From IMG/VR virus record IMGVR_UViG_3300013104_000059, positions 1-32,836 of that record: a stretch of 32,836 nucleotides of DNA. One strand, given 5' to 3'. Position numbers and translations under genes: made by a program. The notes under the pieces were generated by a model. It was not told the origin of the DNA. It did no database searches and saw only the letters and a list, made by a program, of their open reading frames with translations. The DNA comes from a virus. Below, in pieces: positions 19,344-32,718 of the stretch (its first letter is position 1; each line of letters opens with the position of its first letter).

Positions 19344-19359
19344 TTTATTTTTTGATTTA

Positions 19360-19391: not shown

Positions 19392-19469
19392 CAAAGCGAT
19401 TACTAATAGAAGCAGCAACTTCTGGTAATAGCAGGACACAACAACAGTGATTAACTTAAATACAGCAAC

Positions 19470-20010: not shown

Positions 20011-21008
20011 TGACTCAAGGCACCCTGTTTGATTCCAATGGTATGATAAATTATGATGTTTACATAGTTTATTTTTCTGGTGGTAAAGATTGTACCGCTT
20101 CGGTATTACGGCTTATAGAAATGGGGGTGCCTAAACAAAAGATTGAATTATGGCATCATCATATTGATGGAATGGGTGACAATTTCATGGATTGGCCAAT
20201 CACTGAGGCTTACTGTCAAGCCTTCGCCGATGCACTTGGCTTAAAGATTTATTTTTCTTGGAAGGAAGGAGGCTTTAAGCGTGAAATGCTTCGAAAAGAT
20301 TCAAGGACAGCTCCCACAACATTTATTACTCCTGATGGAGAATTAATAACTGTTGGTGGAAATGGGGGGAAGGAATCAACAAGAAGAAAATTTCCTCAGG
20401 TCAGTGCTGACCTTAAAGTAAGATGGTGTTCCGCATATTTAAAGATAGATGTCGGTGCTACTGCTATTCGCAATCAGGCAAGGTTTAATGGAATGAAGGT
20501 ATGTACAATTTCGGGTGAGCGTGGCGAGGAAAGCACCGCTAGAAGCAAATATGAAAGGCTTGAGGCTGACAGGTCGGATAATAGAAATGGGAAAACACCA
20601 CGCTTTGTTGACAGGTGGCGTGTAGTATTAGATTGGGCCGAAAATCAAGTTTGGGATATTATTAAACGCCATAAAATCCGCGTACATCCATGCTACTATT
20701 TAGGCTTTAGTAGATGTAGCTGCCTATTCTGCATTTTCGGTAACGCTAACCAGTTCGCAAGTGCAGACTTGATAAATCCAAAAGGTAGTCAAGTGATACA
20801 GAATTTTGAGAGGGACTTTGGTATCACTATTAAAAGGGGCATGTCAATAGGTGAACTCATTAAAATGGGCACACCTTATAAATCAATAACAAAAAAATTG
20901 GCGGCATTAGCCATGTCGGACGCTTATGATCAGCAAATCATAATGCCAGACTCGGAAGAGTGGCTTTTGCCTGCCGGGGCCTTTGGCGAAAGCTGTGGGC
21001 CAGTGTAA
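20010..21008 (+). CDS. PP-loop ATPase, PAPS reductase-like family
   Basis: From the ATG at 20010 the product has 332 residues; GGAGGG lies 8 bases upstream and the start overlaps the previous stop (TGATG). The nucleotide-binding PP loop is YFSGGKDCTAS (S23-D27), followed by the family's IELWHHHIDG strand. RWCSAYLK at 138-145 matches the PAPS reductase substrate motif. A Cys-rich cluster follows: C228 and GFSRCSCLFC (C236, C238, C241), which could bind Fe-S or zinc. Phage members of this family are not shown to reduce PAPS; they may thiolate or otherwise modify a nucleotide or nucleic acid. The context of Nudix, ASCH-like and DUF5131 genes supports a nucleotide-related role. Confidence 0.85.
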   Translation: MTQGTLFDSNGMINYDVYIVYFSGGKDCTASVLRLIEMGVPKQKIELWHHHIDGMGDNFMDWPITEAYCQAFADALGLKIYFSWKEGGFKREMLRKDSRTAPTTFITPDGELITVGGNGGKESTRRKFPQVSADLKVRWCSAYLKIDVGATAIRNQARFNGMKVCTISGERGEESTARSKYERLEADRSDNRNGKTPRFVDRWRVVLDWAENQVWDIIKRHKIRVHPCYYLGFSRCSCLFCIFGNANQFASADLINPKGSQVIQNFERDFGITIKRGMSIGELIKMGTPYKSITKKLAALAMSDAYDQQIIMPDSEEWLLPAGAFGESCGPV

Positions 21009-21030
21009 AAAACAACAAAATCACAACAAC

Positions 21031-21243
21031 ATGAACACAACAGCAACAAAAATTACTGATGAAACGGCTATGCCTTTCGGAAAGTACAAGGGGACAGCAA
21101 TCGCCAACTTACCAGCAGGATATCTGCTATGGCTCTATCGCAATGAACGATCAGGGCAATTAACAGAGTACATCCTTGAAAACTTTGAGGCACTTGAAAC
21201 TGAAGCCGAAAAGGATGAAAAGAAAGGGGGCAAGAAATGGTAG
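21031..21243 (+). CDS. DUF3820 family protein
   Basis: A 70-residue protein with the DUF3820 signature: MPFGKYKG at 14-21 and LPAGYLLWL at about 27-35, then a helical acidic to basic tail ending KKGGKKW. I start it at the ATG at 21031; a longer frame reaches back into the PP-loop gene but adds only a Gln/Asn-rich tail. Members occur in many phages, with nucleic-acid-related roles suspected but not known to me. The next gene begins inside its last codons. Confidence 0.75.
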   Translation: MNTTATKITDETAMPFGKYKGTAIANLPAGYLLWLYRNERSGQLTEYILENFEALETEAEKDEKKGGKKW

Positions 21244-21416
21244 TTCAAACAGTTCTGAAACCAGATACAAAGATTATGTCCCCTGATGGGAACTTAATCG
21301 TGTTCAGTTACGAAGGTGGAATGTATGATCTTCGAACAAACGGGCGACAAATGTTAATCAATGAAGATGCTGTAAATCATCTTATCGAAGAAAGGGTATG
21401 GTCTGTTGAACCATGA
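21237..21416 (+). CDS. 59-residue protein of unknown function
   Basis: An overlooked short gene. AAAGGGGG precedes the ATG at 21237, it overlaps the DUF3820 stop (ATGGTAG), and its own stop forms ATGA with the following lipoprotein gene. The product (MVVQTVLKPDTKIMSPDGNL..., ending IEERVWSVEP) looks like a small beta-rich protein with a helical end. The good ribosome-binding site and both overlaps make it credible despite its length. No family recognised. Confidence 0.65.
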   Translation: MVVQTVLKPDTKIMSPDGNLIVFSYEGGMYDLRTNGRQMLINEDAVNHLIEERVWSVEP

Positions 21417-21697
21417 GAAAGCTACTCACCCTTAGCATCCTTTTAGCAGTAATAACCGGATGCTCCACTTATCGTAACTACCAACAAGTTGAATTTCCGG
21501 CAATTAAATTAACGGGAAAAGTTGATACTGTTTACTACACTTATCGGTGGGAGAAACAATTTAGATGGCTTTTAATTAAAGGTAAAGCCGTACATGTTTG
21601 GGACTTTAAAATAAAGCAGGGTGATTCTGTTACCATCAATATCAGAAGGATGGATCAGAGGCTTTGGGAAAAGAAAGGAGTGGTCAATGGAAAATAG
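21413..21697 (+). CDS. small lipoprotein in the early operon
   Basis: A 94-residue protein with a lipoprotein signal: MRKLLTLSILLAVITGC, lipobox VITGC with Cys17 as lipid site. The mature part of about 78 residues is basic and beta-rich (GKVDTVYYTYRWEKQFRWLL, VHVWDFKIKQGDSVTINIRR). It begins in ATGA overlap with the 59-residue gene and runs 11 bases into the DUF5131 gene. Prophage lipoproteins made from early or lysogenic operons often block receptors or DNA entry of related phages; that role is a guess from type and position. Confidence 0.75.
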   Translation: MRKLLTLSILLAVITGCSTYRNYQQVEFPAIKLTGKVDTVYYTYRWEKQFRWLLIKGKAVHVWDFKIKQGDSVTINIRRMDQRLWEKKGVVNGK

Positions 21698-22727
21698 TAA
21701 AATAGAATGGACTGATCACACTGCTAATTTATGGTGGGGTTGCCAAAAAGTTCACACAGGCTGCAAAAACTGTTATGCTGAAGCATTGGATAATAGGTAT
21801 AACCATGAGAACCCACATTGGGGGCCTGGTTCTTTTCGTAAAATTGTTAGCGGAGTTTGGAAAGACTTAAATAAATTTCAGCGGGAAGCTGCTAAAGCTG
21901 GTGTTTTTGCAAGGGTTTTCGTCGGTTCAATGATGGACATATTCGAAGATCCTATACCGGTAATGGATAACAACAACGTTTTAATTCCGAGGGACACTCG
22001 GATAGACGCGGCCAATGATCCAATGACTACCCAGCATTTAAGAACTATATTTTTTCATAACATCGATACGGGTATGTATCCAAACCTCATGTTTCTATTG
22101 CTGACCAAAAGGCCTGAAAACATTAATAAATATATACCTACAGCCTGGAGGCAATCACCTCCAAAGAACGTGATGTTTGGGGCTTCTGTAGTTGATCAAG
22201 CAACAGCACTGAAGCTTATTCCTGAGTTAATGAAGGTTAAGAATGCAAAACGTTTTCTGAGTTGTGAGCCGCTTGTTGGTCCAATTGATTTTGAGAACGG
22301 TTTGCATATGACTGATGGAGCTAAATACAATCCTTTAACTGTTGTTGATGATTTTTATCCAATTGACGGGGCAATGGGCGGCATTCATTGGGTTATTTGT
22401 GGAGGTGAATCTGGCCACAACGCTCGCCCTATGCATCCTAATTGGGCTACACAAATAAAAGAACAATGCGTTAGAGCATCAGTTCCTTTTTTCTTCAAAC
22501 AGTGGGGCGAATATCAGCCTACTGGATTTTACGATAGCACCGAGCACGTGATTTGGTTTAATAGCGAGTATAAAACGATCCAAAATACTCAGCCAAGAAT
22601 GTTTCAAATGTATGGCGATGATGGCCGAACAAGGGCAATGAAACGGGTGGGTAAAAAAGAAGCTGGTAATCTGTTAGAAGGCCAACAGTACAAGGAATTT
22701 CCTAGAGAGGAGGTGCCTAATGTTTAA
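21687..22727 (+). CDS. DUF5131 / phage Gp37-Gp68 family protein
   Basis: I start the gene at the ATG at 21687, with AAAGGAG 7 bases upstream; the product has 346 residues. The signature is the three-Cys N-terminus WWGCQKVHTGCKNCYAEAL (C19, C26, C29), followed by FVGSMMDIFED, LLTKRPENI, SCEPLVGPI, and WVICGGESGHNARPMHP with VPFFFKQWGEY. The family is thought to resemble radical SAM enzymes, but here the spacing is CX6CX2C and the reaction is unknown. It is frequent in phages and lies here with PP-loop and Nudix genes. It ends 8 bases inside the next gene. Confidence 0.85.
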   Translation: MENSKIEWTDHTANLWWGCQKVHTGCKNCYAEALDNRYNHENPHWGPGSFRKIVSGVWKDLNKFQREAAKAGVFARVFVGSMMDIFEDPIPVMDNNNVLIPRDTRIDAANDPMTTQHLRTIFFHNIDTGMYPNLMFLLLTKRPENINKYIPTAWRQSPPKNVMFGASVVDQATALKLIPELMKVKNAKRFLSCEPLVGPIDFENGLHMTDGAKYNPLTVVDDFYPIDGAMGGIHWVICGGESGHNARPMHPNWATQIKEQCVRASVPFFFKQWGEYQPTGFYDSTEHVIWFNSEYKTIQNTQPRMFQMYGDDGRTRAMKRVGKKEAGNLLEGQQYKEFPREEVPNV

Positions 22728-22968
22728 ACCTGAAGATTTAACATGGTTGCCTGGTGTATCAACAATAATGGCCAATGCTGAGGGTAAAAAGGCTATCGAT
22801 GTAACCATTATTGTAAATGGAAACAATGAGATTATTATGAAAGTGCCAAAGGATTGGTCAGTTGATACATTTTGGAATTCTTTTGCTCAAGGATGTCTTG
22901 CAATGGGTATTGTGCCTACAAAAATCCATGTTCAACGAGCTATTGTAAAGGAGATTAATAATGGATAG
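22720..22968 (+). CDS. operon protein of unknown function
   Basis: An 82-residue protein, overlapping both neighbours by 8 bases, with AGAGGAGG just before its ATG. It has a beta segment (IDVTIIVNGNNEIIMKVPKDW) and helices (SVDTFWNSFAQGCLAMGIVP, VQRAIVKEIN). No family recognised. Tight spacing shows that it is translated as part of the operon. Confidence 0.6.
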   Translation: MFKPEDLTWLPGVSTIMANAEGKKAIDVTIIVNGNNEIIMKVPKDWSVDTFWNSFAQGCLAMGIVPTKIHVQRAIVKEINNG

Positions 22969-23320
22969 TTTACGCAAAATAATTAAGGACTTTTATTCTA
23001 TTGAATATGATGCTAAGTTTTCGAAATCTGGCACTATAACTTTTCACAATCCTGATAGTTCCGAGTTCACCAAGCATGATTATGATTGGTACATCATCGT
23101 TGCTCTAGAAAAAGCAGATAAAGTTACGATCGATCGTCATTTGCTTACCCGAGAGCTATTATTGGGATATCGTTGGGCGATTCGTGAGGGATACCAGCAC
23201 GGTCTTGATGGCAATCTAAAGCGTGAATACGATTATCCACGCAATAAAAATACCATAAAGGGTATTCAAGGGTACATTGATCTAATTAAAAAACTTAGCG
23301 AAAAGGAGTATCAATCATGA
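22961..23320 (+). CDS. operon protein of unknown function
   Basis: A 119-residue soluble protein starting in the overlap with the preceding gene and ending 4 bases inside the Nudix gene. The sequence contains DWYIIVALEKADKVTIDRHL and LLLGYRWAIREGYQHG, probably helical, and a basic C-terminal helix. It has no obvious catalytic motif. I cannot assign a family; its place between DUF5131 and Nudix genes is all that can be said. Confidence 0.6.
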   Translation: MDSLRKIIKDFYSIEYDAKFSKSGTITFHNPDSSEFTKHDYDWYIIVALEKADKVTIDRHLLTRELLLGYRWAIREGYQHGLDGNLKREYDYPRNKNTIKGIQGYIDLIKKLSEKEYQS

Positions 23321-23748
23321 AATTATATGTATTAGGATTTGCATTTAGTGCAAATAAAAAAGAAATCGTTTTAATTGAGAAACAAAAACCAGACTGGCAA
23401 AAAGGAAAATTAAATGGTATTGGCGGCAAAATTGAACCAAATGAAGTGCCTTATTTGGCAATGGTTCGAGAATTTGAAGAAGAAACCGGAGTGAAAACAA
23501 ATATTGCCGACTGGGATTTATTCGGTGAAATGGTTTTTCAAACTGACATTATGGGTGGTGAGGCCAAAATATATCTATTCAGGATGTTCAATGACATTAT
23601 CGATGATTGTGTAACTAAAGAAGAGGAAGAGGTTTTAAGAGTGAATACTGATACAGTATTGAGCGTTTTTAGCTGCATGCATAATCTGCCAATACTAATA
23701 CCTCTTGCATTAAGTGATGAGTTTGGTTTTACAACATTGAAAGATTAA
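23317..23748 (+). CDS. Nudix hydrolase
   Basis: A 143-residue enzyme with a perfect Nudix box: G37 (x5) E43 (x7) R51 E52 F53 x E55 E56 x G58 V59, in GKIEPNEVPYLAMVREFEEE-TGV. The Glu residues bind divalent metal and the enzyme should hydrolyse a nucleoside diphosphate linked to another group. The upstream strand (LYVLGFAFS) and WQKGKLNGIGG are typical. Substrate cannot be told from the sequence; phage Nudix enzymes act on ADP-ribose, NAD-like or modified nucleotides. ATGA overlap with the gene before and a 2-base gap to the ASCH-like gene. Confidence 0.92.
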   Translation: MKLYVLGFAFSANKKEIVLIEKQKPDWQKGKLNGIGGKIEPNEVPYLAMVREFEEETGVKTNIADWDLFGEMVFQTDIMGGEAKIYLFRMFNDIIDDCVTKEEEEVLRVNTDTVLSVFSCMHNLPILIPLALSDEFGFTTLKD

Positions 23749-23750
23749 AT

Positions 23751-24233
23751 ATGACATTAGGATTTTCACAAGAAATAAAAGGTGTTAAGAACTTCTTTTT
23801 AGGGAAAATATGGCAAGGTTTGATAAACTTGGACGAACGTAACCTTGCGCACTATTGCCGTTACATGGATCAACATGATAAGCAATTCGGAAAGCTTTGG
23901 GAAGAGTCGGTTAATCATAAGCCTAAGGTCCACACTATACGTTCTGGTATTGGCCGATGGCGTCCAGGCATGGACATTCACATGGTCATCAATAATCGGA
24001 CTAAAAACCGGTTCCAGTTTGCGCCAACGATTAAATGTAAACGTGTACAGGAAATAAAAATAACATGGCAAAATGGATTCCCTGCAGTATTTGTAGATGG
24101 TGCTTATGTAAATAGACACTTAGTTGAAAAACTGGCTATTAACGATGGTTTTGAATCTGTCGATGATTTCTTCGCCTACTTCAACAAAGACTTTACCGGA
24201 ACATTAATTCACTGGACAGAACTTAAATATTAA
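23751..24233 (+). CDS. ASCH/PUA-like domain protein
   Basis: A 160-residue protein whose pattern resembles ASCH-type beta-barrel proteins that bind RNA or modified bases. It includes KPKVHTIRSGIGRWRPGMDI with HMVINNRTKNRF (ASCH-like 'HTIR...RW.pG..i' region), CKRVQEIKITW, an acidic VDGAYV segment and a C-terminal LAINDGFESVDDFFAYFNKD followed by LIHWTEL. Last gene of the rightward operon; a strong terminator follows. Given its PP-loop and Nudix companions, recognition of a modified nucleotide or RNA is a reasonable but untested idea. Confidence 0.65.
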   Translation: MTLGFSQEIKGVKNFFLGKIWQGLINLDERNLAHYCRYMDQHDKQFGKLWEESVNHKPKVHTIRSGIGRWRPGMDIHMVINNRTKNRFQFAPTIKCKRVQEIKITWQNGFPAVFVDGAYVNRHLVEKLAINDGFESVDDFFAYFNKDFTGTLIHWTELKY

Positions 24234-24239
24234 AACGAT

Positions 24240-24272
24240 AGCCGATTAGTTTATTTAATCGGCTTCTTTTTT
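24240..24272 (+). terminator. terminator of the rightward early operon
   Basis: AGCCGATTA (24240-24248) pairs over 9 bp with TAATCGGCT (24256-24264) around GTTTATT, then TCTTTTTT. It begins 7 bases after the ASCH-like gene stop and overlaps the 3' end of the convergent gene at 24251-24934, so it may work in both directions. Confidence 0.9.
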
Positions 24273-24934
24273 AATTTTTCATTCTCAAGTTTCAACTGCT
24301 TGTTTGAGTTAAGTAGTTCAATTTTCTCGTTATCAAACTTGGCCGCACCATTATCTTTGCCCAAATTGTATGCTTTATCCCAAACAGTCCAGTATCCACC
24401 TATCCCAACGACAAAAATACTCGCCCAGCCTGCGACTTTAATGTAAGACCATAGCGCTTTTGAAAATTTTTCTATTGAAAATCTTTTTTCTTTTTCTATA
24501 TCAGCTAATCTTAGTTGTAGTATTTTATTTTCTGACTTAATCCTATCTAGTTCAATTGTATTGGCCTTAAGAGCGTTTGATAATTTGGTGTTCAGATCAT
24601 TTTGTTGAGTAATAGTCATCCTTTGCTGGAAATCCTTATGGTCTGCTGATTGTACAGTTTCCTCATAAGGAGATATAAGTTGTTTTAATGTATCTAAAAG
24701 CTTTTTTTTGTCTATGTAAAAAGAGGTGTAGTTTATATTTCCACGCAACTCCCCGAATTTTAAAGATTGTATATGATAATATTGCAAGGATTTGTCTGGA
24801 ATCTCAAGTGTCAGCCATCCATACGCCTTGTTTCTTAAATCTTCAGCTTTCTTGACTGATGAGGTAGGCCATTTATTTTCAAACTCAAGCTCTTCTATTT
24901 CCTTTAAAATGGCTTTAATCTTTTGTAGGTTCAT
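24251..24934 (-). CDS. membrane-anchored coiled-coil protein
   Basis: A 227-residue protein. The N-terminal half is helical with KAYGWLTLEIPDKSLQYYHI and a possible globular domain. A coiled coil spans about 105-155 (LNTKLSNALKANTIELDRIK, LQLRLADIEKEK). One transmembrane helix lies near 165-185 (IKVAGWASIFVVGIGGYWTVW), and a second coiled coil follows to the end (LLNSNKQLKLENEKLKKK). Topology suggests a signalling or scaffold role at the inner membrane. No family recognised. It stands alone between the operon terminator and a divergent small gene, in the manner of a moron. Confidence 0.6.
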   Translation of the reverse strand: MNLQKIKAILKEIEELEFENKWPTSSVKKAEDLRNKAYGWLTLEIPDKSLQYYHIQSLKFGELRGNINYTSFYIDKKKLLDTLKQLISPYEETVQSADHKDFQQRMTITQQNDLNTKLSNALKANTIELDRIKSENKILQLRLADIEKEKRFSIEKFSKALWSYIKVAGWASIFVVGIGGYWTVWDKAYNLGKDNGAAKFDNEKIELLNSNKQLKLENEKLKKKPIK

Positions 24935-25033
24935 TTGTATCGGTTTAGTTACTGCAAGGTTAAAATTTTAATAACACCTTTCTTAAATAATTATACACAA
25001 TTGCCTGTTGTCAACATTGGTCTGACTTTTGTT

Positions 25034-25041
25034 TATATTCG
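25034..25041 (+). promoter_or_regulatory. promoter -7-like element TATATTCG before 25045 gene
   Basis: TATATTCG differs from TAnnTTTG by one base and ends 3 bases before the ATG, so transcription would begin at or near the start codon. TTG sequences lie 17-24 bases upstream. It fits a leaderless message. Confidence 0.35.
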
Positions 25042-25044
25042 TGT

Positions 25045-25398
25045 ATGACAGACGAAACATTCAGAATTAAAAGCAATACTGGTGATGATCTAATCGTTTC
25101 GATATGGGAGTATAAAAAGCTTCGCGATAAGATCCGAGCTAATCTTCAACAATTCTATAAAGATTGTGACTTTAGAGATGCTGGAATGGATGATCCAGAT
25201 ATTGTTTTCTTTTGCACCATCTATGGTAAAACGATCATTAAAAAATTCAATGCTGCCGAATGGCTTGAGGCCGAAAGGTCGGGCCAGTTTAATGAGAAGT
25301 ATTACGAATTCACCAAATCAAAAAAGAAATCTTCTGTTTCAATCGGTAGTATGGCCGGTACTGGTGATGGAAAGTTTAGGAGAAAGAAATCATTTTAA
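25045..25398 (+). CDS. small protein of unknown function
   Basis: A 117-residue protein with an ordered first 85 residues (VSIWEYKKLRDKIRANLQQF, DIVFFCTIYGKTIIKKFNAA) and a basic, Ser/Gly-rich C-terminal tail (SKKKSSVSIGSMAGTGDGKF ending RRKKSF) that could bind nucleic acid. It is the first gene of a short rightward unit ending at the tRNA-like element. No family recognised. Confidence 0.55.
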   Translation: MTDETFRIKSNTGDDLIVSIWEYKKLRDKIRANLQQFYKDCDFRDAGMDDPDIVFFCTIYGKTIIKKFNAAEWLEAERSGQFNEKYYEFTKSKKKSSVSIGSMAGTGDGKFRRKKSF

Positions 25399-25410
25399 TA
25401 ACTTTACATA

Positions 25411-25620
25411 ATGGAAAATAATTTCGCCGACCAGGTTGAATCAAAGGCAAGGCTTCAATTTAAGTTACACGTTGCTGATACTAATTTGGAAGAAATGATC
25501 GAAAAAGTTAAGTCTAGTGATGTTTCTGATAAAGTTAAACAAGAGCTCTTTAATTGGATCGATGAAGCGAGACCTAATTTAATGAGGGCAATAGCTTTAA
25601 AAGAAATATATAGGAAATAG
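25411..25620 (+). CDS. small helical protein of unknown function
   Basis: A 69-residue, probably all-helical protein (ADQVESKARLQFKLHVADTN, LEEMIEKVKSSDVSDKVKQE, ELFNWIDEARPNLMRAIALK). It lies 12 bases after the previous gene. A structured, tRNA-shaped stretch begins directly at its stop codon. No family recognised. Confidence 0.55.
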   Translation: MENNFADQVESKARLQFKLHVADTNLEEMIEKVKSSDVSDKVKQELFNWIDEARPNLMRAIALKEIYRK

Positions 25621-25692
25621 TTCCAGTTAGCTCAAAGAAAGAGGGTCCCACTAGATGGGGCAGATGCATGATTGAAAAGTAGTGCACTGGAT
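25621..25692 (+). ncRNA. tRNA-shaped RNA element (degenerate tRNA or novel RNA)
   Basis: The strand folds with tRNA topology. TCCAGT (25622-25627) pairs with ACTGGA (25686-25691). T-A follows. D-like stem CTC/GAG has loop AAAGAAA. A 5-bp anticodon-like stem GTCCC/GGGGC encloses ACTAGAT. After four bases, a 6-bp T-like stem (25666-25671 with 25680-25685, one mismatch) encloses TTGAAAAG. It differs from a working tRNA: no GG in the D loop, C at the U33 place, no TTC in the T loop, only 6 acceptor pairs. A terminator follows at once. Confidence 0.35.
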
Positions 25693-25725
25693 AGCCCTGG
25701 CAATTAATTTTGTTCAGGGTTTTTT
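25693..25725 (+). terminator. terminator after tRNA-shaped element
   Basis: AGCCCTGG (25693-25700) pairs with TTCAGGGTT (25714-25721; two G.T pairs) and is followed by a T run to 25725. It ends the rightward transcript just before the convergent gene at 25727. Confidence 0.75.
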
Positions 25726-25726
25726 A

Positions 25727-25945
25727 TTATGGAAATTGTCCTAAAACAATATAGTCATCATACCAATCGTCGAATGATTCATCTTCATCAGTGCATGTTA
25801 TTATGTTTTCTCCTTTGGTAATGTTTAGAAAATTATTCATGTGGTCTATTTGTTCAGGCCATATATTAACATCTCCGACTGCATCATCGCCAATGGCAAC
25901 AGCGATTTGCTTTGAGTGACATACTAGATAATAAACTTTACTCAT
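25727..25945 (-). CDS. small protein of unknown function
   Basis: A 72-residue acidic protein (KVYYLVCHSKQIAVAIGDDA, EDESFDDWYDDYIVLGQFP). It is joined by TAATG to the gene upstream, so both are one unit. The high acid content, with D/E clusters near the end, is of a kind seen in anti-restriction and immunity proteins, but this is only a composition remark. No family recognised. Confidence 0.5.
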   Translation of the reverse strand: MSKVYYLVCHSKQIAVAIGDDAVGDVNIWPEQIDHMNNFLNITKGENIITCTDEDESFDDWYDDYIVLGQFP

Positions 25946-26166
25946 TATCTTACAAATCTTTTTATCCGATCGGATAGTTCAATTAATACCTCTTTTGCCC
26001 TGGCTTCATCTGCCTCAATCAATCGCTGCTTTCCAGATCCGGCAATCTTCTCATTAATCTTATTGCTGAATACTTTAGCTGCATGCTTTTTATCCGGCCA
26101 CATTAAGTTAGCTAAAGCAGATTCTTTGATCACTTTATTCTCTTCTAAAAATTCTTTCAAGTTCAT
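25945..26166 (-). CDS. small helical protein, possible DNA-binding regulator
   Basis: A 73-residue basic, all-helical protein (LKEFLEENKVIKESALANLM, WPDKKHAAKVFSNKINEKIA, DEARAKEVLIELSDRIKRFV). The pattern of a short HTH followed by a long helix resembles small phage Cro-like proteins, but I cannot place the family. It is first in a two-gene leftward unit, divergent from the gene at 26268 across 101 bases of AT-rich DNA. Confidence 0.5.
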   Translation of the reverse strand: MNLKEFLEENKVIKESALANLMWPDKKHAAKVFSNKINEKIAGSGKQRLIEADEARAKEVLIELSDRIKRFVR

Positions 26167-26211
26167 GTATCAAATAAACAAAATATATATTAGAAAAAAA
26201 AGTAATATTTA

Positions 26212-26244
26212 TTTGGATTGTATTAGAAAATAATCTTATATTTG
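26212..26244 (+). promoter_or_regulatory. Bacteroidota-type promoter (TTTG ... TATATTTG)
   Basis: TATATTTG at 26237-26244 is an exact TAnnTTTG element. TTTG at 26212-26215 and TTG at 26218-26220 lie 21 and 16 bases upstream. The start codon at 26268 is 23 bases downstream. This is the best promoter in the window. Confidence 0.7.
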
Positions 26245-26267
26245 TTCTATACAAAAACGAAAAGATT

Positions 26268-26528
26268 ATGAAAGCTTTAGAAATCAAATTATTAGAAAAA
26301 CAAGTAACTGTTACTTACAACTTTTTTAGAGTTCAAAATGAAAAAGAATTTGTGAATACTGTTGTTTTTGACAACGGATATACTGAAAGATTGGATTCTG
26401 TAGCTAATGAATTAAGATTCGATACTTACAAAAACGAAAAAGCATTCAAAAATGCTTGGTCAAACAAAAAAAGGTTAGAGTTCATCAACGCTAACATCAA
26501 TGCGTTGCCTGATCAATGGACAAACTAA
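26268..26528 (+). CDS. small highly expressed-looking protein of unknown function
   Basis: An 86-residue basic protein (KALEIKLLEKQVTVTYNFFR, VFDNGYTERLDSVANELRFD, KNEKAFKNAWSNKKRLEFIN). It is a single-gene unit with the best promoter in the window and stem-loops behind it, and an A-rich leader, all suggesting strong independent expression, perhaps in the lysogen. Codons are AT-rich and its Asn/Lys/Phe content stands out from its neighbours. No family recognised. Confidence 0.6.
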   Translation: MKALEIKLLEKQVTVTYNFFRVQNEKEFVNTVVFDNGYTERLDSVANELRFDTYKNEKAFKNAWSNKKRLEFINANINALPDQWTN

Positions 26529-26538
26529 AAAACACTTG

Positions 26539-26580
26539 CCCCGACTCCAAAAAGGATCGGGGAAATTCCTGGAGTTTTTG
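26539..26580 (+). terminator. terminator region with two competing hairpins
   Basis: CCCCGA-C-TCC (26539-26548) can pair with GGATCGGGG (26554-26562). Alternatively ACTCC (26544-26548) pairs with GGAGT (26571-26575), extended by AGGA (26553-26556) with TCCT (26567-26570), leading into a T run. The two exclude each other. Position after the 86-residue gene suggests termination. Confidence 0.6.
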
Positions 26581-26581
26581 T

Positions 26582-26630
26582 AATATCGGCTAATTGTCCG
26601 ATATTTTCATTTATCGGGTATTCACCCGAT
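26582..26630 (+). promoter_or_regulatory. two further hairpins before the 26672 gene
   Basis: AATATCGG (26582-26589) pairs with CCGATATT (26598-26605), and ATCGGGT (26613-26619) with ACCCGAT (26624-26630). With the hairpin at 26539 this makes three stem-loops in about 90 bases. They share ATCGG/CCGAT, so partners can be swapped. Confidence 0.6.
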
Positions 26631-26659
26631 ATTATAATTTCTGAAGATTTTGAAATTTG

Positions 26660-26667
26660 TATATTTG
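26660..26667 (+). promoter_or_regulatory. -7 element TATATTTG directly before the 26672 start
   Basis: An exact TAnnTTTG element that ends 4 bases before the ATG. Transcription would begin at or beside the start codon, giving a leaderless message. No clear -33 TTTG is seen at the usual distance. Confidence 0.45.
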
Positions 26668-26671
26668 CCGC

Positions 26672-26890
26672 ATGAACTTACAGGATGTCGCCACATTAGA
26701 AGATTGGTTTAAAAGTGTTGAATTACCAAAGCCGCCGATAATGCTTTTCCCTGGAACGGTAATATCTGACTTAGATAAGTTCTTAGAGGTTCATTTTGCC
26801 GCTTTAAAAGCAAATCCGGATAGCAAGTCTAATGTTCCTGTTTGGCATCGCCTACGGGCATTAAAATTGCTAATAGAATCTAATCTTTAG
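26672..26890 (+). CDS. small protein, possibly DUF6965 family
   Basis: From the ATG at 26672 the product has 72 residues; the -7 element immediately upstream rules against the earlier TTG start at 26657. The sequence (LEDWFKSVELPKPPIMLFPG, TVISDLDKFLEVHFAALKAN, then VPVWHRLRALKLLIESNL) matches my recollection of a short Bacteroidota family with WF....LP..P..L.PGT and a RL..LK end (DUF6965); I have not checked it. It overlaps the 3' end of the convergent HicB-like gene by 11 bases. Confidence 0.6.
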   Translation: MNLQDVATLEDWFKSVELPKPPIMLFPGTVISDLDKFLEVHFAALKANPDSKSNVPVWHRLRALKLLIESNL

Positions 26891-27242
26891 ATGATTTCTT
26901 TCTAGGATAAAACTGATTTTCAAAATCTATTACATGTTGTGGTTTTTCAGTCCAAGTTGGTTTGCCTGTAGTTCTTTGTGGTGCAACATAATTACTTTTA
27001 ACTAAGTGAGCCTTGACGAAAAGAACCACAGGATCATCGGAGCCAGCGTTTCGTAAATGTGCTTGTAGTTTAGCATCCCAATTATTGACAGCCTCGGCAA
27101 CTGATGCACCAATACCTTTTACAGATTCGTGAATATCAGCAGGGAGCAAACAGATAAAACCTGGTGATTCGTTATAAACTTCAGCCCCAAGCTCCCCCGC
27201 TAATCCTTCGAGTTCAATATCAATATGCTTTCTTCTAGGCAT
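26880..27242 (-). CDS. HicB-like protein of unknown function
   Basis: A 120-residue protein. The first 20 residues are basic (MPRRKHIDIELEGLAGELGA). Then YNESPGFICLLPADIHES and KGIGASVAEAVNNWDAKLQAHL recall the HicB pattern of a 'GxG.tveEA..n...ai' helix. The C-terminal third (TTGKPTWTEKPQHVIDFENQ) is polar. It overlaps the DUF433 gene by 8 bases. HicB-like proteins are antitoxins; here it is paired with DUF433, not with a HicA RNA-binding toxin. Resemblance is from a pattern only. Confidence 0.45.
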   Translation of the reverse strand: MPRRKHIDIELEGLAGELGAEVYNESPGFICLLPADIHESVKGIGASVAEAVNNWDAKLQAHLRNAGSDDPVVLFVKAHLVKSNYVAPQRTTGKPTWTEKPQHVIDFENQFYPRKKSSKD

Positions 27243-27453
27243 TGCTGTCGTTTTTATGGTATAGTATTGCGGCAGGGATATCGTCTGGCTCTAAAATAGG
27301 ATGCTCTTTCAAGATCTGTTTGTGGCTCATTCCCGATTCTAGCATTTCGATAATATCCATAACGGTAAAACGATTGGCCCTTATCGTTGGTTTTCCTCCC
27401 ATGAGGCCCGGGACAATTGTAATTCGCGCCAAAAGTTCTTTATCCGTTGCCAT
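27235..27453 (-). CDS. DUF433 family protein (VapB-like)
   Basis: A 72-residue protein with the DUF433 signature: ITIVPGLMGGKPTIRANRFT at 11-30, then VMDIIEMLESGMSHKQILKE and HPILEPDDIPAAILYHKND. These proteins fold as a winged-helix-like DNA binder and often act as antitoxin to a DUF5615 (PIN-like) toxin. No DUF5615 gene is here; the following gene is HicB-like. It lies one base after the SRAP gene. Confidence 0.85.
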   Translation of the reverse strand: MATDKELLARITIVPGLMGGKPTIRANRFTVMDIIEMLESGMSHKQILKEHPILEPDDIPAAILYHKNDSNA

Positions 27454-27454
27454 G

Positions 27455-28177
27455 TTAAAACAAAGTCGTTTTAGGTTCTTCTACCTTCAATAAAGCTTCT
27501 GGTTTATTCCCGATCTTTACTAAATCCCTATTCACTCGATAAGCCGCCATGTTAGAATCATCGCAAGGATTCATTAGATGGATTACCTCTTCTTTACTGG
27601 TTGATGGATCTAGCCAGGAATTTATTTGATCATTTGAAATAATAATTGGTTGCCTTTTTTGACTGTTATGTATGCTTGCCATTAGTACGTTAGCCGGACC
27701 TGTGACGATGCTAAAAGATTTTATCCATTCCTTGGTGTCCGGATTTTTATAAAGAGCGTATAGACACGCCAGATTGAAAAACGGATGCTCTTTCGGATGA
27801 ATAAAATAGGGCAATTTGTCCTCATCCACCTCCTGGTACTCGAAAAAACCATTTACCGGCACAATGCACCGTTTGGTCATTATTGAACCTTTAAAAGATG
27901 ATAGATCAAATATCGTTTCAGATCTGGCATTTAAAGTTTTATTACTTTTTTTTACCATTTCTTCAAGGCTATAGTTCCAGTTAGGCATTAGGCCCCACTG
28001 CATGCGCTCAGTTTGCCGCGCACCATCCTTTGCCGATATTGCAACCAGGTTTGGATGAGCAAAACCGTTTGCATGGTAGTAAATCTGATCTTCTAGATCC
28101 TTTTCATTTAAAACTGGAGCTGCATAGTAATCAGCATACTCGTATGTTTTGGAAGTTTGGGTAGCTCTATAACACAT
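27455..28177 (-). CDS. SRAP domain protein (YedK/HMCES-like DNA-protein crosslinker)
   Basis: The 240-residue product starts MCYRA, exposing Cys2 after Met removal, the residue that forms a covalent adduct with abasic sites in single-stranded DNA. Other active-site residues are visible: N83 and R85 in TLNARSE, E113 in GFFEY, H170 in ASIHNSQKR. The length is normal for the family. It can shield abasic sites from cleavage and is common in phages and near DNA-damage genes. It lies in a leftward operon with small unknown genes and ends one base before DUF433. Confidence 0.93.
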   Translation of the reverse strand: MCYRATQTSKTYEYADYYAAPVLNEKDLEDQIYYHANGFAHPNLVAISAKDGARQTERMQWGLMPNWNYSLEEMVKKSNKTLNARSETIFDLSSFKGSIMTKRCIVPVNGFFEYQEVDEDKLPYFIHPKEHPFFNLACLYALYKNPDTKEWIKSFSIVTGPANVLMASIHNSQKRQPIIISNDQINSWLDPSTSKEEVIHLMNPCDDSNMAAYRVNRDLVKIGNKPEALLKVEEPKTTLF

Positions 28178-28207
28178 ACTCTAAATTAGTGATTAATCTT
28201 TCCATTT

Positions 28208-28495
28208 CTAATTTATTTCTGATTTTGGTGTGCCATGTAGAATAACTGAGCAAACATAATTGCCGTCGTACATAAATGAAACCTCAAGATCGAAGTGCAA
28301 TTTTATACCTGCAATTTTCATGCTTTCAAATGCAAATTCCGCCATAGCCTCATTTGATGCAAAAGGCCTTTCTTTTGGTATAAACAAGAATACCTTATTT
28401 GGCTCTGCTAGCTTTACATCTATTTTTAAAGTTGTAAAAATGTATCTCAGTCTTTCCGCGATAGTATTTAACGCTTCGTTGTACAAACCTTCCAT
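28208..28495 (-). CDS. small protein of unknown function
   Basis: A 95-residue protein with an alpha/beta pattern (LNTIAERLRYIFTTLKIDVK, KVFLFIPKERPFASNEAMAE, KLHFDLEVSFMYDGNYVCSV). It lies 5 bases after the 149-residue gene and 30 bases before the SRAP gene, so part of the same leftward operon. No family recognised. Confidence 0.55.
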   Translation of the reverse strand: MEGLYNEALNTIAERLRYIFTTLKIDVKLAEPNKVFLFIPKERPFASNEAMAEFAFESMKIAGIKLHFDLEVSFMYDGNYVCSVILHGTPKSEIN

Positions 28496-28500
28496 GAGAT

Positions 28501-28950
28501 TTAGTTTATGTAAATTTCTTCAATTTGTTCACTTCCTTCTTTTCCTAAGTAAATTATCAGGTCTTTATCAAACAATACTACATCATATACCTGATCTCGG
28601 ATAACCGATGCAAATTCAGATAAATTTACATCCGGATGGGCGATAAGCTTTAAACTATCGTCTTCGTTCCAGTCCCAACCTAAAAGATCATTAGGATACA
28701 TCTCTTTCAGTGCAAAAGGGAGATTGTAAATAGCAGCTTGCTCTTTTAAAGCCATAGATAAATCTGGAAGTTCATCCCTTAGTAAATCATCATCTGTTTG
28801 CCATCCGAATTCGGCATCATCATCTTTAACCATGGTGCCCAGATAGGCATCTCCAATAGTGACATTATAAACCTCGTCATCCTGATCAATACGAACCAAC
28901 ATAGGTTCTCCTACTTTAATCGGGGTATATGTAAAAGTGCTAGTGTGCAT
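28501..28950 (-). CDS. acidic protein of unknown function
   Basis: A 149-residue, very acidic protein (VRIDQDDEVYNVTIGDAYLG, MVKDDDAEFGWQTDDDLLRD, LLGWDWNEDDSLKL). The strong negative charge and size recall DNA-mimic or anti-restriction proteins, but also simple unknown Bacteroidota proteins. Two halves may be related beta-alpha units. A 14-base gap separates it from the upstream gene. No family recognised. Confidence 0.55.
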   Translation of the reverse strand: MHTSTFTYTPIKVGEPMLVRIDQDDEVYNVTIGDAYLGTMVKDDDAEFGWQTDDDLLRDELPDLSMALKEQAAIYNLPFALKEMYPNDLLGWDWNEDDSLKLIAHPDVNLSEFASVIRDQVYDVVLFDKDLIIYLGKEGSEQIEEIYIN

Positions 28951-28964
28951 AGTTTATATTTTGG

Positions 28965-29294
28965 TTATTTAAAGTTAACATTCTTACTTGGCTTTAGTTT
29001 TAAGTCATAATATTCCCACATCTTTTTCGTATGTTGCTGTATAAACTGGGATGCCCGTAAGATAGTTTCGTTTGCTATATCAAGCCCCTGTCTTGGGTCC
29101 ATCAACACCAGCTGAGGAGCAGAAGCTTGATTTCTGTGAACTTTTATGTCTTCATTTGAAAATGCAAATTCTTCTGGAGTATACCACTTCTTTGTTGTTT
29201 TGCTATATATCCATTGGTTATTTGCTTTTGCTTTTAGTGCCAGATGTGCCCGATAATCGCGGCCAGGATCTGGCTGTGGTCCCCATGAACTCAT
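28965..29294 (-). CDS. small basic protein of unknown function
   Basis: The 109-residue product starts MSSWGPQPDPGRDYRAHLAL. The ATG at 29294 overlaps the previous stop as ATGA, so I prefer it to the TTG at 29300. The central segment (KANNQWIYSKTTKKWYTPEE) and a C-terminal helix (ASQFIQQHTKKMWEYYDLKL) are basic. No family recognised. Confidence 0.55.
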   Translation of the reverse strand: MSSWGPQPDPGRDYRAHLALKAKANNQWIYSKTTKKWYTPEEFAFSNEDIKVHRNQASAPQLVLMDPRQGLDIANETILRASQFIQQHTKKMWEYYDLKLKPSKNVNFK

Positions 29295-29644
29295 TCCCAA
29301 TCTGGATTTTTAACATTAAAAGTATTTTTATATAATTCGCCCCTGCCTCTTACTACTATTCCAAAAGAATATCCTCTGTATCCAATTTTTTTTAAAAAAA
29401 TTCCAAGGTTCGGAATCAAAATTTGTTCGATCATCTTGGGTGCCATATCTTTTACTTTTCCTTTGAAATACCTATCTGTATATAATTCATTAAATCCAAC
29501 TAAATCTATTACAATATCAGCTCCTTGAACTTCAACTAATTTATCTAAACTCAATATCCATGGCCTCATATAGTCATTAAGCCAAAACCAGCTTTGTATC
29601 TGGCGTTCAAGCGCGGGTTTATATCTTCCAAAATTTAATTCCAT
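29291..29644 (-). CDS. small protein of unknown function, first of leftward operon
   Basis: A 117-residue protein with aromatic-rich N-terminus (QIQSWFWLNDYMRPWILSLD), a beta stretch (DIVIDLVGFNELY) and a basic C-terminus (IGYRGYSFGIVVRGRGELYK). It is the first gene of the seven-gene leftward unit that runs to 26880, and divergent from the gene at 29730 across 85 bases. No family recognised. Confidence 0.55.
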   Translation of the reverse strand: MELNFGRYKPALERQIQSWFWLNDYMRPWILSLDKLVEVQGADIVIDLVGFNELYTDRYFKGKVKDMAPKMIEQILIPNLGIFLKKIGYRGYSFGIVVRGRGELYKNTFNVKNPDWE

Positions 29645-29698
29645 AACTATAACCGCACAAAGTTTGCTAATATTTTTAGCAATTCAAAATTATTGATA

Positions 29699-29706
29699 TA
29701 AATTTG
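29699..29706 (+). promoter_or_regulatory. -7 element TAAATTTG before the 29730 gene
   Basis: Exact TAnnTTTG match, 23 bases upstream of the ATG at 29730. No -33 TTTG is seen at the right distance (the nearest, at 29663, is too far). Confidence 0.4.
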
Positions 29707-29729
29707 TAGAGAAATTAAGAGTGATTGTT

Positions 29730-29954
29730 ATGGCTAAGAAATTCAAATTCAGAAAAATGTACTTTCATTGCAGGGATGGTAAAGTAATCGCAGATAATGT
29801 ACAAATGACTAATGCCTATCGTGAAAGGAAAGATGCTGAGGCTACTTTGGGGTACGATGATGGGCACAAAATGTGGGACGATAAAACTAAACCTATCCCA
29901 AAGCGAACTGTAGAGGGCTTTTACCTGGTACATGAGAGTTTATTTGAAAAATAG
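29730..29954 (+). CDS. small basic protein of unknown function
   Basis: A 74-residue protein from the ATG at 29730 (MAKKFKFRKMYFHCRDGKVI); a GTG three codons earlier is possible. Rich in Lys and Asp, with ADNVQMTNAYRERKDAEATL as probable helix and ending GFYLVHESLFEK. First of five short rightward genes behind the MuF gene. No family recognised. Confidence 0.55.
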   Translation: MAKKFKFRKMYFHCRDGKVIADNVQMTNAYRERKDAEATLGYDDGHKMWDDKTKPIPKRTVEGFYLVHESLFEK

Positions 29955-29983
29955 TATCTTTATTTAAAATTAAATTATGCTCT

Positions 29984-30187
29984 ATGACAAAAAATGAATT
30001 AAGAAAAGTGTATTTCTCATACTGGGACAGCATGGGGATTGATCACAAAGGGTACTTTCACGGCATCGGTAATTTCTACAGCGCTGATAAGGAAGGAATA
30101 ATCACTTTGGCGGTAGTTGAAGAGGCTGAAACTGGTAACATGATGAAAACCGAAGTGGATTTAATAAGGTTTGTCGATAAATGGTAG
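29984..30187 (+). CDS. small protein of unknown function
   Basis: A 67-residue protein (ELRKVYFSYWDSMGIDHKGY, FHGIGNFYSADKEGIITLAV, then VDLIRFVDKW). Its pattern looks like a small beta-rich fold. It overlaps the next gene by 7 bases (ATGGTAG). Confidence 0.5.
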   Translation: MTKNELRKVYFSYWDSMGIDHKGYFHGIGNFYSADKEGIITLAVVEEAETGNMMKTEVDLIRFVDKW

Positions 30188-30378
30188 TGAAGTTAGATGA
30201 TGAGTTGGCAGAAAGCATGACTAGGCCACAGTTTTATTTAGATTCAGCAGCTGCACCTGATCGGAACGATTTTTATTATAAAATAACCCATGGAAATGTC
30301 GATTTCGAAGTTAGATGGAGTAAAGACATTGCAGTTACTAATCCTAAATGGCATATTATAGTTACGAAATTGAATTAA
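30181..30378 (+). CDS. small protein of unknown function
   Basis: A 65-residue protein (VVKLDDELAESMTRPQFYLD, FYYKITHGNVDFEVRWSKDI, ending KWHIIVTKLN), joined to both neighbours: ATGGTAG before and TAATG after. This coupling makes it real. No family recognised. Confidence 0.5.
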   Translation: MVVKLDDELAESMTRPQFYLDSAAAPDRNDFYYKITHGNVDFEVRWSKDIAVTNPKWHIIVTKLN

Positions 30379-30623
30379 TGAGGCATTCCGAATCAGAAAT
30401 AATTGAGAAAGCGTTTGACCAATTAGGAAGAGACCGATCGCTTATAATGCACCGTGATCAAACGGTACAAGAAATTTTCTTTATTGAGAAAAATGATACA
30501 GATGTTATTCAGTTTCACAAACATACCTATTTGGTTAAATTCGTGAAGTCCGAAACTTATCCGCATGTATGGGATTTTGATGAGATTATCGATTGGAGAA
30601 TTAGTCCAATGATCAACAAATAA
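30378..30623 (+). CDS. small protein of unknown function
   Basis: An 81-residue protein, started at the ATG that forms TAATG with the previous stop (an in-frame start at 30348 would overlap the preceding gene by 31 bases). Sequence features: ESEIIEKAFDQLGRDRSLIM, a beta stretch QEIFFIEKNDTDVIQFHKHT and aromatic C-terminus YPHVWDFDEIIDWRIS. No family recognised. Confidence 0.55.
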   Translation: MRHSESEIIEKAFDQLGRDRSLIMHRDQTVQEIFFIEKNDTDVIQFHKHTYLVKFVKSETYPHVWDFDEIIDWRISPMINK

Positions 30624-30627
30624 AATT

Positions 30628-30906
30628 ATGAAAACAATATTTGATTATAATCCTTCTGAAAAAGAGTTGATAGAGCTTTTTGGTTTCGATAAAAGGTCAG
30701 ATTCAATGGCTTATGGCTTTTCTGTATTTTTATTGCCAAATAAAAATTACGAAAAAGAAAATACCGACGATGGTAAGTTATTGGACATTGCGAAGCTTTT
30801 GGAATTTAGAGGGCAGAAAGAAGAAGCTGCTGATATTTGGGTCCAAATTCCAGATATTGAAAGACAGTACCGTTCTGGCTTCGATTACCAGGTAGTAACC
30901 GTCTAG
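30628..30906 (+). CDS. small protein convergent with MuF gene
   Basis: A 92-residue acidic protein (PSEKELIELFGFDKRSDSMA, LLDIAKLLEFRGQKEEAADI, WVQIPDIERQYRSGFDYQVV). Its stop codon abuts that of the MuF gene with no base between. Being the last of a set of short unknown genes beside a protein with a toxin-like domain, it is a candidate immunity protein, by position only; immunity genes usually follow in the same direction. Confidence 0.5.
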   Translation: MKTIFDYNPSEKELIELFGFDKRSDSMAYGFSVFLLPNKNYEKENTDDGKLLDIAKLLEFRGQKEEAADIWVQIPDIERQYRSGFDYQVVTV

Positions 30907-32718
30907 CTATTTTTTGTATTTCTCGAAGAACTTCATAAGTTCAAATTGTATCGATCGATAATCCTTCATTAATATTGGGCTTAACTCTTTTAATGCCAGC
31001 TGCTCAGATATTCCATTTGATTCAAGCCTATTTCTGAAATCCCTTATCCATTGGGTATAACCATAGCCATTATCTAGAATGGCTTTTTTATGGGCTGCTT
31101 TTCCACCCAGTTTAGCTAAGAAGTCAGAATATGAATGCCTGGCTACGAACTGGTTTACAGTTTCCATTGCTTGAGTTTGGGCAGTAGTCAGCTGTCGAGG
31201 TGGAGTTTTGGTTTTGGCATGTAATATTTCATGCCATAGCGATTCGATCGAATATTCTTGGTTAAATGTAAGGGGATTGCCAGCTTTGATATTGGACAAC
31301 GCTGCTTTAAATTCTTCAGCAGGATTAAAGCCAATAGTTAAAAAGGTGTTGCTACTGATCGTGATCTTAGCGGGTCCAACCCATTCTCCGGTTGAAGGTT
31401 TATAATTAGCAGAATGCTGCATCATATAACTTCTGGAATTTAGGAATTTTACGGAATCTATACCTGTTCTAAAATCTTCTGGATATTTCTTTGAGTAAGC
31501 AAGTATAATTGATTCAGCTTCTTTGTTTGTGGGTATATCGCCTTTAATAAAGTCACTAAGGTTAATTATATCATCATCATCATCATATTGGTCGACTGGT
31601 TTATTTGAAGCTCCTTGGCGCTTAGTATTGAACTTAAGCCCCTTCTTCATATCGCCATCCTTAAAATTATCCCTAACCCAGAATGGTTTATTTTTGCCCT
31701 CTCGATCTTTATTGGTTTCTACCCATTCTTTAAAGTTTGGCGGCACATCAGAAACGGAATTTTCGGAATCTTTGCCAGAATTTTCGGAATTTCCACGGAA
31801 TTTAGCCTGCTCTTCACGATCTATCTCTTCTGCAGTCTTTAGAATTGATATTGCATGGCAGCGGCATTGTGGGTGCCAGCCAACAAATTTAAATTCCTTT
31901 GGATATTTACCTTTTAAGGCCTCACAAAGCTTGCAGTGGTTTGGATTGTTACTTAACTTAATCTCAATGCCGACAACAAAATCCAATTGATTCCAGCGTT
32001 CATGATCTGCAGCTCTGTAAGCCATATTGGTTTCAGTTCTGGCCACACGTGCAGCATTCATGAATGATGATCGATAAACACCGGTACCTGGATTATAAGC
32101 CGCCATGGCTTTTGATGGCACCAGTCCTCCACGTTTGTTTCTGACTCTCCTGAAGATGTTTGAAGGATCTTTTAAGTGTGTTTTTAATATCCTAGCTAAA
32201 GCAGCTGCAGATTGACCTTCACCTATACCAATATCAAGCGCCAACTCTACTTCTGTTCGCTGATCATTTGCATACCTCCAAATACGATCAGATAACCCTA
32301 GTCTTTTAGGACCATCTTTTCTATTTTGAAATGCTGCCAAGGCATCTGCATTCCGATTAGCGTATTTTTCGATATCAGCCTTAGATAACCGACTTTTACC
32401 GAGTATTGCTTTTACGATCTCATCATTCTTTTCACCCGAAAACTTCCATTCATCCTTGATGCCAGATTGAATGGTTGTTAAAACACCGCTATAAGTATCG
32501 TTAATGATCTTATCAAGCCTTTTTTGCGTTTCTGGGTAATCTTTGAAGTTAAATACTTTGTTTGGATTGAAATTCGTAATAGATGCGCCAAGTTTAGCAT
32601 ATTCATCAAGTGCAGAAAGATAGATATCCTCAACCATTTCCGCATATTTTTCAATACGGGAAAGGTGCTGCTTTTCAAATCTAGCATCATCTATTGATAT
32701 GAATCTACGCTTGGCCAA
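30907..32718 (-). CDS. MuF-type minor head protein with C-terminal HExxH domain
   Basis: A 603-residue protein in two parts. Residues 1-295 are a phage minor head protein (SPP1 gp7/Mu gpF type) with ARVARTETNMAYRAADHERW and the zinc-knuckle-like C262-x2-C265 ... H282-x2-C285-x-C287 (NHCKLCEALKG, GWHPQCRCHAI), which mark this family. A polar linker with a run of Asp (about 300-395) follows. Residues 395-603 are an extra domain with SLWHEILHAK, H496-E497-x2-H500, the HExxH motif of zinc metallopeptidases, and E519 as possible third ligand. In polymorphic MuF systems the C-terminus is a toxin delivered with the phage. It lies 7 bases after the gene that is probably the portal. Confidence 0.85.
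   Translation of the reverse strand: MAKRRFISIDDARFEKQHLSRIEKYAEMVEDIYLSALDEYAKLGASITNFNPNKVFNFKDYPETQKRLDKIINDTYSGVLTTIQSGIKDEWKFSGEKNDEIVKAILGKSRLSKADIEKYANRNADALAAFQNRKDGPKRLGLSDRIWRYANDQRTEVELALDIGIGEGQSAAALARILKTHLKDPSNIFRRVRNKRGGLVPSKAMAAYNPGTGVYRSSFMNAARVARTETNMAYRAADHERWNQLDFVVGIEIKLSNNPNHCKLCEALKGKYPKEFKFVGWHPQCRCHAISILKTAEEIDREEQAKFRGNSENSGKDSENSVSDVPPNFKEWVETNKDREGKNKPFWVRDNFKDGDMKKGLKFNTKRQGASNKPVDQYDDDDDIINLSDFIKGDIPTNKEAESIILAYSKKYPEDFRTGIDSVKFLNSRSYMMQHSANYKPSTGEWVGPAKITISSNTFLTIGFNPAEEFKAALSNIKAGNPLTFNQEYSIESLWHEILHAKTKTPPRQLTTAQTQAMETVNQFVARHSYSDFLAKLGGKAAHKKAILDNGYGYTQWIRDFRNRLESNGISEQLALKELSPILMKDYRSIQFELMKFFEKYKK

What the first reader, a model, noticed from the sequence alone, without database searches (positions are those of the whole stretch)
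30907..32718. MuF minor head protein fused to a putative zinc metallopeptidase toxin domain
Residues 262-287 have the Cys/His cluster of MuF proteins and residues 496-500 are HEILH, a metallopeptidase zinc motif with E519 as possible third ligand. Fusions of MuF to toxin domains are known (MuF polymorphic toxins), but I cannot name this C-terminal domain. The extra 200 residues follow a low-complexity Asp-rich linker, as a swapped module would. The enzyme could act on the target cell on DNA entry, on lysogens of rivals, or on the head itself in maturation; the scaffold here has no visible protease.
Basis: partly seen in the sequence, partly recalled or inferred. Interest (0 to 1): 0.75.

Follow-up and report, generated by a model that had tools for sequence, protein, structure and literature searches.

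The report
Phage head protein carrying protease toxin
A virus of Bacteroidota bacteria carries, on the end of a head protein that is probably injected with its DNA, a swappable domain that looks like a zinc protease toxin, and a small gene facing it on the other strand is very likely its antidote.

Summary
The ORF is on the minus strand (30907-32718, TTG start, 603 aa). Residues 13-353 are a MuF head protein; residues 384-603 are a separate domain with HEILH (496-500) and E519. Across 48 relatives H496, E497, H500, E519, R527 and Y554 never vary, and the predicted fold (pLDDT 97) has zincin topology. No Pfam, NCBIfam or PADLOC family covers the domain.

It is a swapped toxin cassette. Fourteen MuF relatives (N-terminus 40-47% identical) carry other C-termini (ART, Zeta, GNAT-like) or none. 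The same domain (43-61% identical) sits on an unrelated Mu-type MuF, and a more distant one on a PAAR-like protein in a type VI secretion locus.

Not in the finding: a small gene on the opposite strand (30628-30906) abuts the toxin's 3' end. Relatives adjoin 54 of 59 toxin ORFs (52 tail-to-tail), and none was found beside MuF genes with other C-termini. They evolve with the toxin domain, not the MuF part: the likely immunity gene, placed so that it can be expressed without the late operon.

Best reading: a MuF polymorphic toxin with a new zincin payload and a convergent immunity gene. Proteolysis, toxicity and injection are inferred, not shown.

The parts
30907..32718 (-). MuF-zincin fusion gene, 603 aa, TTG start
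   Evidence: open frame; PHROG matches; portal gene directly upstream in L019
31636..32718 (-). MuF head-protein part, residues 1-361 (conserved 13-353)
   Evidence: matches in 17 viral contigs and 28 phage records stop at or before residue 361
31855..31935 (-). Cys/His cluster of the MuF domain, residues 262-288
   Evidence: sequence
31570..31659 (-). variable Asp-rich linker, residues 354-383
   Evidence: sequence; homology of N-only relatives ends here
30910..31569 (-). zincin-like metallopeptidase toxin domain, residues 384-603
   Evidence: 48-member alignment and AlphaFold2 model pLDDT 97.1
31219..31233 (-). HEILH, residues 496-500: two zinc histidines and catalytic Glu (predicted)
   Evidence: H, E, H invariant in 48 relatives
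31162..31164 (-). E519, predicted third zinc ligand
   Evidence: invariant in 48 relatives; on the helix after HExxH
31138..31140 (-). R527, invariant
31057..31059 (-). Y554, invariant
30628..30906 (+). candidate immunity gene, 92 aa, convergent, stop codon abutting that of the toxin
   Evidence: family beside 54 of 59 toxin ORFs, 52 of them convergent; coevolves with the toxin domain
29721..30623 (+). four small plus-strand ORFs (77, 67, 65, 91 aa) leading into the candidate immunity gene; possibly co-transcribed
   Evidence: spacing and strand only; no relatives in the fetched loci

Best explanation
This is a MuF polymorphic toxin of a temperate Bacteroidota phage, probably of the Pedobacter family. 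(1) The MuF part assembles into the head next to the portal (known for MuF proteins; inferred here). (2) The zincin domain rides in the virion and enters the next cell with the DNA (inferred; the published MuF hypothesis, not shown for this phage). (3) There it cleaves one or more host proteins, using a zinc held by H496, H500 and E519 with E497 as general base (inferred from invariant residues and predicted fold). (4) The 92-aa protein encoded on the opposite strand binds and blocks it (inferred). Because this gene is convergent to the late operon it can be made from early or lysogenic transcription, and so protects the lysogen, and a newly lysogenised cell, from the toxin. Shown by sequence comparison: the module swap, the near-strict pairing and coevolution with the partner, the invariant catalytic-type residues, and the reuse of a related toxin-partner pair in a type VI secretion locus.
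For: Swap in both directions: same N-term with other or no C-term and same C-term on a Mu-type MuF next to a Mu-type portal. Invariant H, E, H, E, R, Y. Confident model with zincin order of elements. Partner gene: 54 of 59, none in the loci of MuF with other C-termini, 7 of 7 in an independent survey of 602 genomes, partial Mantel r 0.69 with the toxin domain versus 0.01 with the N-term. A related domain is fused to PAAR-like DUF4280 inside a T6SS locus, followed by a partner 68% identical to that of a phage copy.
Against: No experiment. No significant fold match in the PDB or in BFVD, so the zincin call rests on motif, topology and confidence; zinc geometry could not be measured because no coordinates were available. 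Five of 59 toxin ORFs lack a recognised partner (L009, L013, L063, L082, L084). No promoter could be shown for the partner.
Confidence: 0.8

Rival explanations
1. The domain is a virion protease that processes the head, the scaffold or the MuF protein itself during maturation, and is an ordinary structural part.
For: No protease is recognised in the window's scaffold gene; phrog_595, called 'head maturation protease', matches residues 139-523 weakly; P1 DdrB is thought to process itself through a C-terminal metallopeptidase (PMC5512222).
Against: Sister MuF proteins without the domain exist (L003, L006, L016, L017). Phages L045, L047 and L053 carry both the domain and a Mu-like maturation protease. 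A dedicated convergent partner gene and a T6SS copy have no place in this reading.
Confidence: 0.07
2. The domain is an injected enzyme that helps the infecting phage, for example by destroying a host defence or regulatory protein and so steering lysis or lysogeny; it is not a weapon against rivals. The partner limits this activity once lysogeny is set.
For: Jamet et al. propose this for MuF proteins with mild activities such as peptidases (PMC5576092). It shares all evidence for delivery, catalysis and partner.
Against: Reuse of a related domain as a PAAR-linked T6SS cargo points to plain toxicity toward bacteria.
Confidence: 0.25
3. The convergent small gene is not immunity but a chaperone or loading factor for the zincin domain, or an antisense regulator of the toxin gene.
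For: It is a small helical TPR-like protein, nearly always adjacent, and overlaps the toxin's 3' end by a few bases in most loci.
Against: A chaperone should be made with the late gene, not against it. Protein-level conservation (codon-position differences 27/16/54) speaks against a purely antisense role. Other payloads have different convergent genes, and the ART of L010 is followed by a convergent ADP-ribosylglycohydrolase, the type of enzyme shown to be immunity for Bxa (PMC11699363).
Confidence: 0.12

Closest known systems
Bxa of the Bacteroides stercoris prophage (MuF-ADP-ribosyltransferase) with immunity proteins Bsi and BAH (PMC11699363)
   Same: Homologous MuF N-terminus (phrog_16625, E 1.8e-83); toxin at the C-terminus; adjacent small immunity gene
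   Different: Payload here is a predicted zinc metallopeptidase. The paper names ART, glutamine deamidase and alarmone synthetase payloads and no metallopeptidase; its text says nothing on strand.
MuF toxins of Firmicutes temperate phages (Jamet et al. 2017, PMC5576092)
   Same: MuF gene after the portal gene, swapped C-terminal toxin, small neighbouring ORF; 20% of the 191 have a metallopeptidase domain
   Different: Bacteroidota hosts (not mentioned in that text); this domain family has no Pfam name; the small ORF is on the opposite strand. Whether the domain is among their metallopeptidases could not be checked (supplements not readable here).
MPTase-PolyVal zincins of phage and plasmid polyvalent proteins (PF18818; PMC5512222)
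   Same: Element order, HExxH plus Glu on the next helix, injected-protein context
   Different: Profile comparison gives 2% probability; none of the 48 relatives matches the Pfam model
VgrG2b C-terminal metallopeptidase toxin and PA0261 immunity protein (PMC6899460)
   Same: HExxH metallopeptidase toxin with cognate immunity protein; T6SS delivery, as in L083
   Different: No match to any peptidase Pfam family. VgrG2b acts in the periplasm and its immunity protein is periplasmic; the partner here shows no obvious signal peptide by eye.

Membership tests
MuF polymorphic toxins | MuF domain at the N-terminus | tested here: met
   phrog_7625 5.7e-69 and others; Pfam weak, below cut-off
MuF polymorphic toxins | gene directly after the portal gene | tested here: met
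   outside the window, but in the 79%-identical L019 the SPP1_portal gene ends 8 nt before it (E 3e-41)
MuF polymorphic toxins | C-terminal domain swaps among relatives | tested here: met
MuF polymorphic toxins | toxin domain shared with another toxin delivery system | tested here: met
   DUF4280 fusion in a T6SS locus, L083
MuF polymorphic toxins | adjacent small immunity gene | tested here: met
   a specific small partner gene is adjacent; its immunity function is inferred
MuF polymorphic toxins | temperate phage | tested here: met
   integrase 224-1516 beside tRNA-Ala; relatives integrated in chromosomes
MuF polymorphic toxins | toxic activity and delivery in the virion | not testable with these tools
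   needs expression and virion proteomics
Zincin metallopeptidases (gluzincin type) | HExxH and a downstream Glu ligand, both conserved | tested here: met
   invariant in 48 sequences
Zincin metallopeptidases (gluzincin type) | fold: sheet, HExxH helix, Glu helix, with close structural neighbours | tested here: inconclusive
   element order fits; Foldseek has no hit at E <= 0.001, weak ones include DPP III, TACE, SprT, IrrE
Zincin metallopeptidases (gluzincin type) | zinc binding and proteolysis | not testable with these tools
   needs purified protein
MPTase-PolyVal (PF18818) | sequence-profile membership | tested here: not met
   hhalign probability 2%; no Pfam hit in 48 members
Phage head maturation protease | needed for head assembly, so kept by relatives and not doubled | tested here: not met
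   absent in L003, L006, L016, L017; co-occurs with Mu-like_Pro in L045, L047, L053

The most novel reading that the evidence does not exclude
Tail-to-tail immunity is a general design of Bacteroidota phage MuF toxins: whatever the payload, its antidote lies on the opposite strand at the toxin's stop codon, so that the antidote is made in lysogens and freshly infected cells while the toxin is made only late and carried in the virion. Infection would then spare only cells that keep and express the incoming phage, or already hold it.
Probability: 0.5. Interest if true: 0.72.

Novelty: new variant of a known kind. Interest (0 to 1): 0.6.

Why it matters
It adds an unnamed, widespread predicted metallopeptidase toxin family, with a specific partner family, to the few MuF toxins that have been studied (Apk2, Bxa). 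It gives a directly testable toxin-antidote pair whose gene layout suggests when each is made, and so bears on the open question of what MuF toxins are for. The layout may also explain why such antidotes were missed: Zhang et al. 2012 counted toxin and immunity genes as one operon only if on the same strand, and examined opposite strands only when head to head (PMC3482391).

Tried and rejected
The C-term alone as a single-sequence query found nothing; a four-sequence alignment was needed. No match to the C-term in phage or plasmid records. No solved relative by sequence (the best, E 0.005 to a designed TIM barrel, does not cover the motif). Foldseek with both models gave no significant PDB match. 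The NDUFA12 Pfam hit (0.0031) around HEILH is below its cut-off and seen in one member only: rejected. The Bacteroidota -33/-7 promoter pattern is no more frequent than chance, so no promoter is claimed; a TAAATTTG lies at 29699-29706 before the plus-strand genes. Head-maturation protease and MPTase-PolyVal membership were rejected as above. PADLOC: nothing. The four other plus-strand ORFs as additional immunity genes: no relatives found, left open.

Full report
What is there. The window is a 32.8-kb virus record of a temperate phage: integrase at 224-1516 beside a tRNA-Ala at 48-125, a tape-measure gene, and tail and capsid genes on the minus strand that I read from position and sequence. The finding's ORF is on the minus strand, 30907-32718, TTG start, 603 aa. 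The record ends just upstream of it. In the nearest relative (L019/L070, a prophage of Pedobacter nototheniae; N-term 79% and C-term 76% identical) an SPP1-type portal gene ends just before it.

Two parts. Residues 13-353 match MuF head proteins of many Bacteroidota phages; in 28 phage records the match stops at residue 361 or before. Residues 384-603 form a second domain. Aligning 48 relatives leaves L494, W495, H496, E497, I498, H500, E519, R527 and Y554 invariant. W495 is replaced in two further members found later; the H, E, H, E residues are kept in all five of these. AlphaFold2 gives pLDDT 97.1 with the order helix, three strands, helix, HExxH helix, Glu helix, close to the zincin core described by Iyer et al. 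2017 (PMC5512222). No fold match to the PDB is significant, and no Pfam, NCBIfam or PADLOC family covers the domain; PHROG 35295 holds it under 'unknown function'.

The domain is a swapped module. Fourteen viral MuF proteins 40-47% identical to the window over the N-terminal part have other C-termini (ART in L004, Zeta toxin in L018, GNAT-like in L014, others unassigned) or none (L003, L006, L016, L017). Conversely, the window's C-term is 43-61% identical to that of Mu-type MuF proteins with no significant N-terminal similarity; in L022 that gene follows a Mu-type portal. In L083, from a Lentimicrobiaceae genome, a more distant relative of the domain is fused to a PAAR-like DUF4280 protein between VgrG and other type VI secretion genes. 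This domain is 64% identical to that of phage locus L067, and the small genes beside the two are 68% identical, while the rest of the two proteins shows no similarity.

The partner. All-against-all comparison of neighbouring ORFs brought up one cluster: an ORF of about 75-130 aa on the opposite strand, tail to tail with the toxin and usually overlapping its end by a few bases. In the window it is 30628-30906, 92 aa; the two stop codons abut. Counting both partner families, which profile comparison joins at 92% probability, 54 of 59 distinct toxin ORFs with room downstream have it, 52 convergent and 2 same-strand. It was not found in any locus of MuF with other C-termini. In 602 genomes of two bacterial families, 7 hold the toxin and all 7 have an adjacent convergent partner, six in family 1 and one in family 2; no clear orphan partner was found. 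The Fisher p of 1e-13 counts only the six and ignores kinship. Distances of partner and toxin domain correlate after removing N-term distance (r 0.69, p 0.0004, 15 loci), while partner and N-term do not after removing toxin distance (r 0.01). Codon-position differences of 27/16/54 between window and L019 show that it is a coding gene. Its model is helical and TPR-like.

The layout may go further than this toxin. Several other payloads in the same phage group also have a small convergent ORF at the toxin's end, each with a different sequence (L004, L010, L011, L014, L015, L018). Behind the ART-like payload of L010 the second convergent gene is an ADP-ribosylglycohydrolase (3.5e-35), the kind of enzyme shown to be immunity for Bxa (PMC11699363). 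Two of the four MuF genes without extension (L016, L017) run on to a same-strand gene, probably the scaffold. This is a small sample, and those ORFs were not tested for conservation.

Mechanism and limits. A protease toxin carried in the head, delivered with DNA, and blocked by a partner that can be made outside the late operon fits all of this. Not shown: zinc, proteolysis, target, toxicity, packaging, neutralisation. The maturation-protease rival is unlikely because sister phages do without the domain and some phages carry both it and a Mu-like maturation protease. A milder role, in which the injected enzyme helps the infecting phage, is not excluded and is listed as a rival.

Known versus new. 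MuF polymorphic toxins, including metallopeptidase ones, are known (PMC5576092), and so are Bxa and its immunity proteins. New here, as far as the papers and libraries at hand show, are this domain family as a named entity, its partner family, their use in both phage heads and a T6SS, and the convergent arrangement. That search covers open-access text only, and the supplements of Jamet et al. were not readable, so the domain itself may be in their tables.

Noticed in passing
window 19212-30906: About 11.7 kb of mixed-strand, non-structural genes (HTH, PAPS-reductase-like, DUF5131, NUDIX-like, SRAP) separates MuF from the scaffold and capsid genes that should follow it, so the late operon is split.
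   Followed up: no
L004, L010, L011, L014, L015, L018, just after the MuF stop: Other MuF payloads (ART, Zeta toxin, GNAT-like, unassigned) each have a different small convergent ORF at the stop codon; L010 adds a convergent ADP-ribosylglycohydrolase.
   Followed up: partly
L083:5329-6797: PAAR-like DUF4280 protein with the same kind of zincin domain plus a partner gene inside a Bacteroidota type VI secretion locus (Lentimicrobiaceae genome).
   Followed up: yes
L081:3509-4381 and 6437-6829: In a Deferribacteraceae genome the partner family occurs next to the toxin and again nearby as a 290-aa ORF that seems to hold repeated partner units.
   Followed up: no
L084:78-4263: Bacteroidales genome fragment with a zincin domain behind a MuF-tail remnant, without a recognised partner; looks like displaced toxin C-termini.
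   Followed up: no
window 19470-19796: HTH protein with a weak MqsA-antitoxin match (Pfam E 6.9e-6, below cut-off), possibly the phage regulator.
   Followed up: no
window 48-125 and 224-1516: tRNA-Ala beside the tyrosine integrase, the probable attachment site.
   Followed up: no
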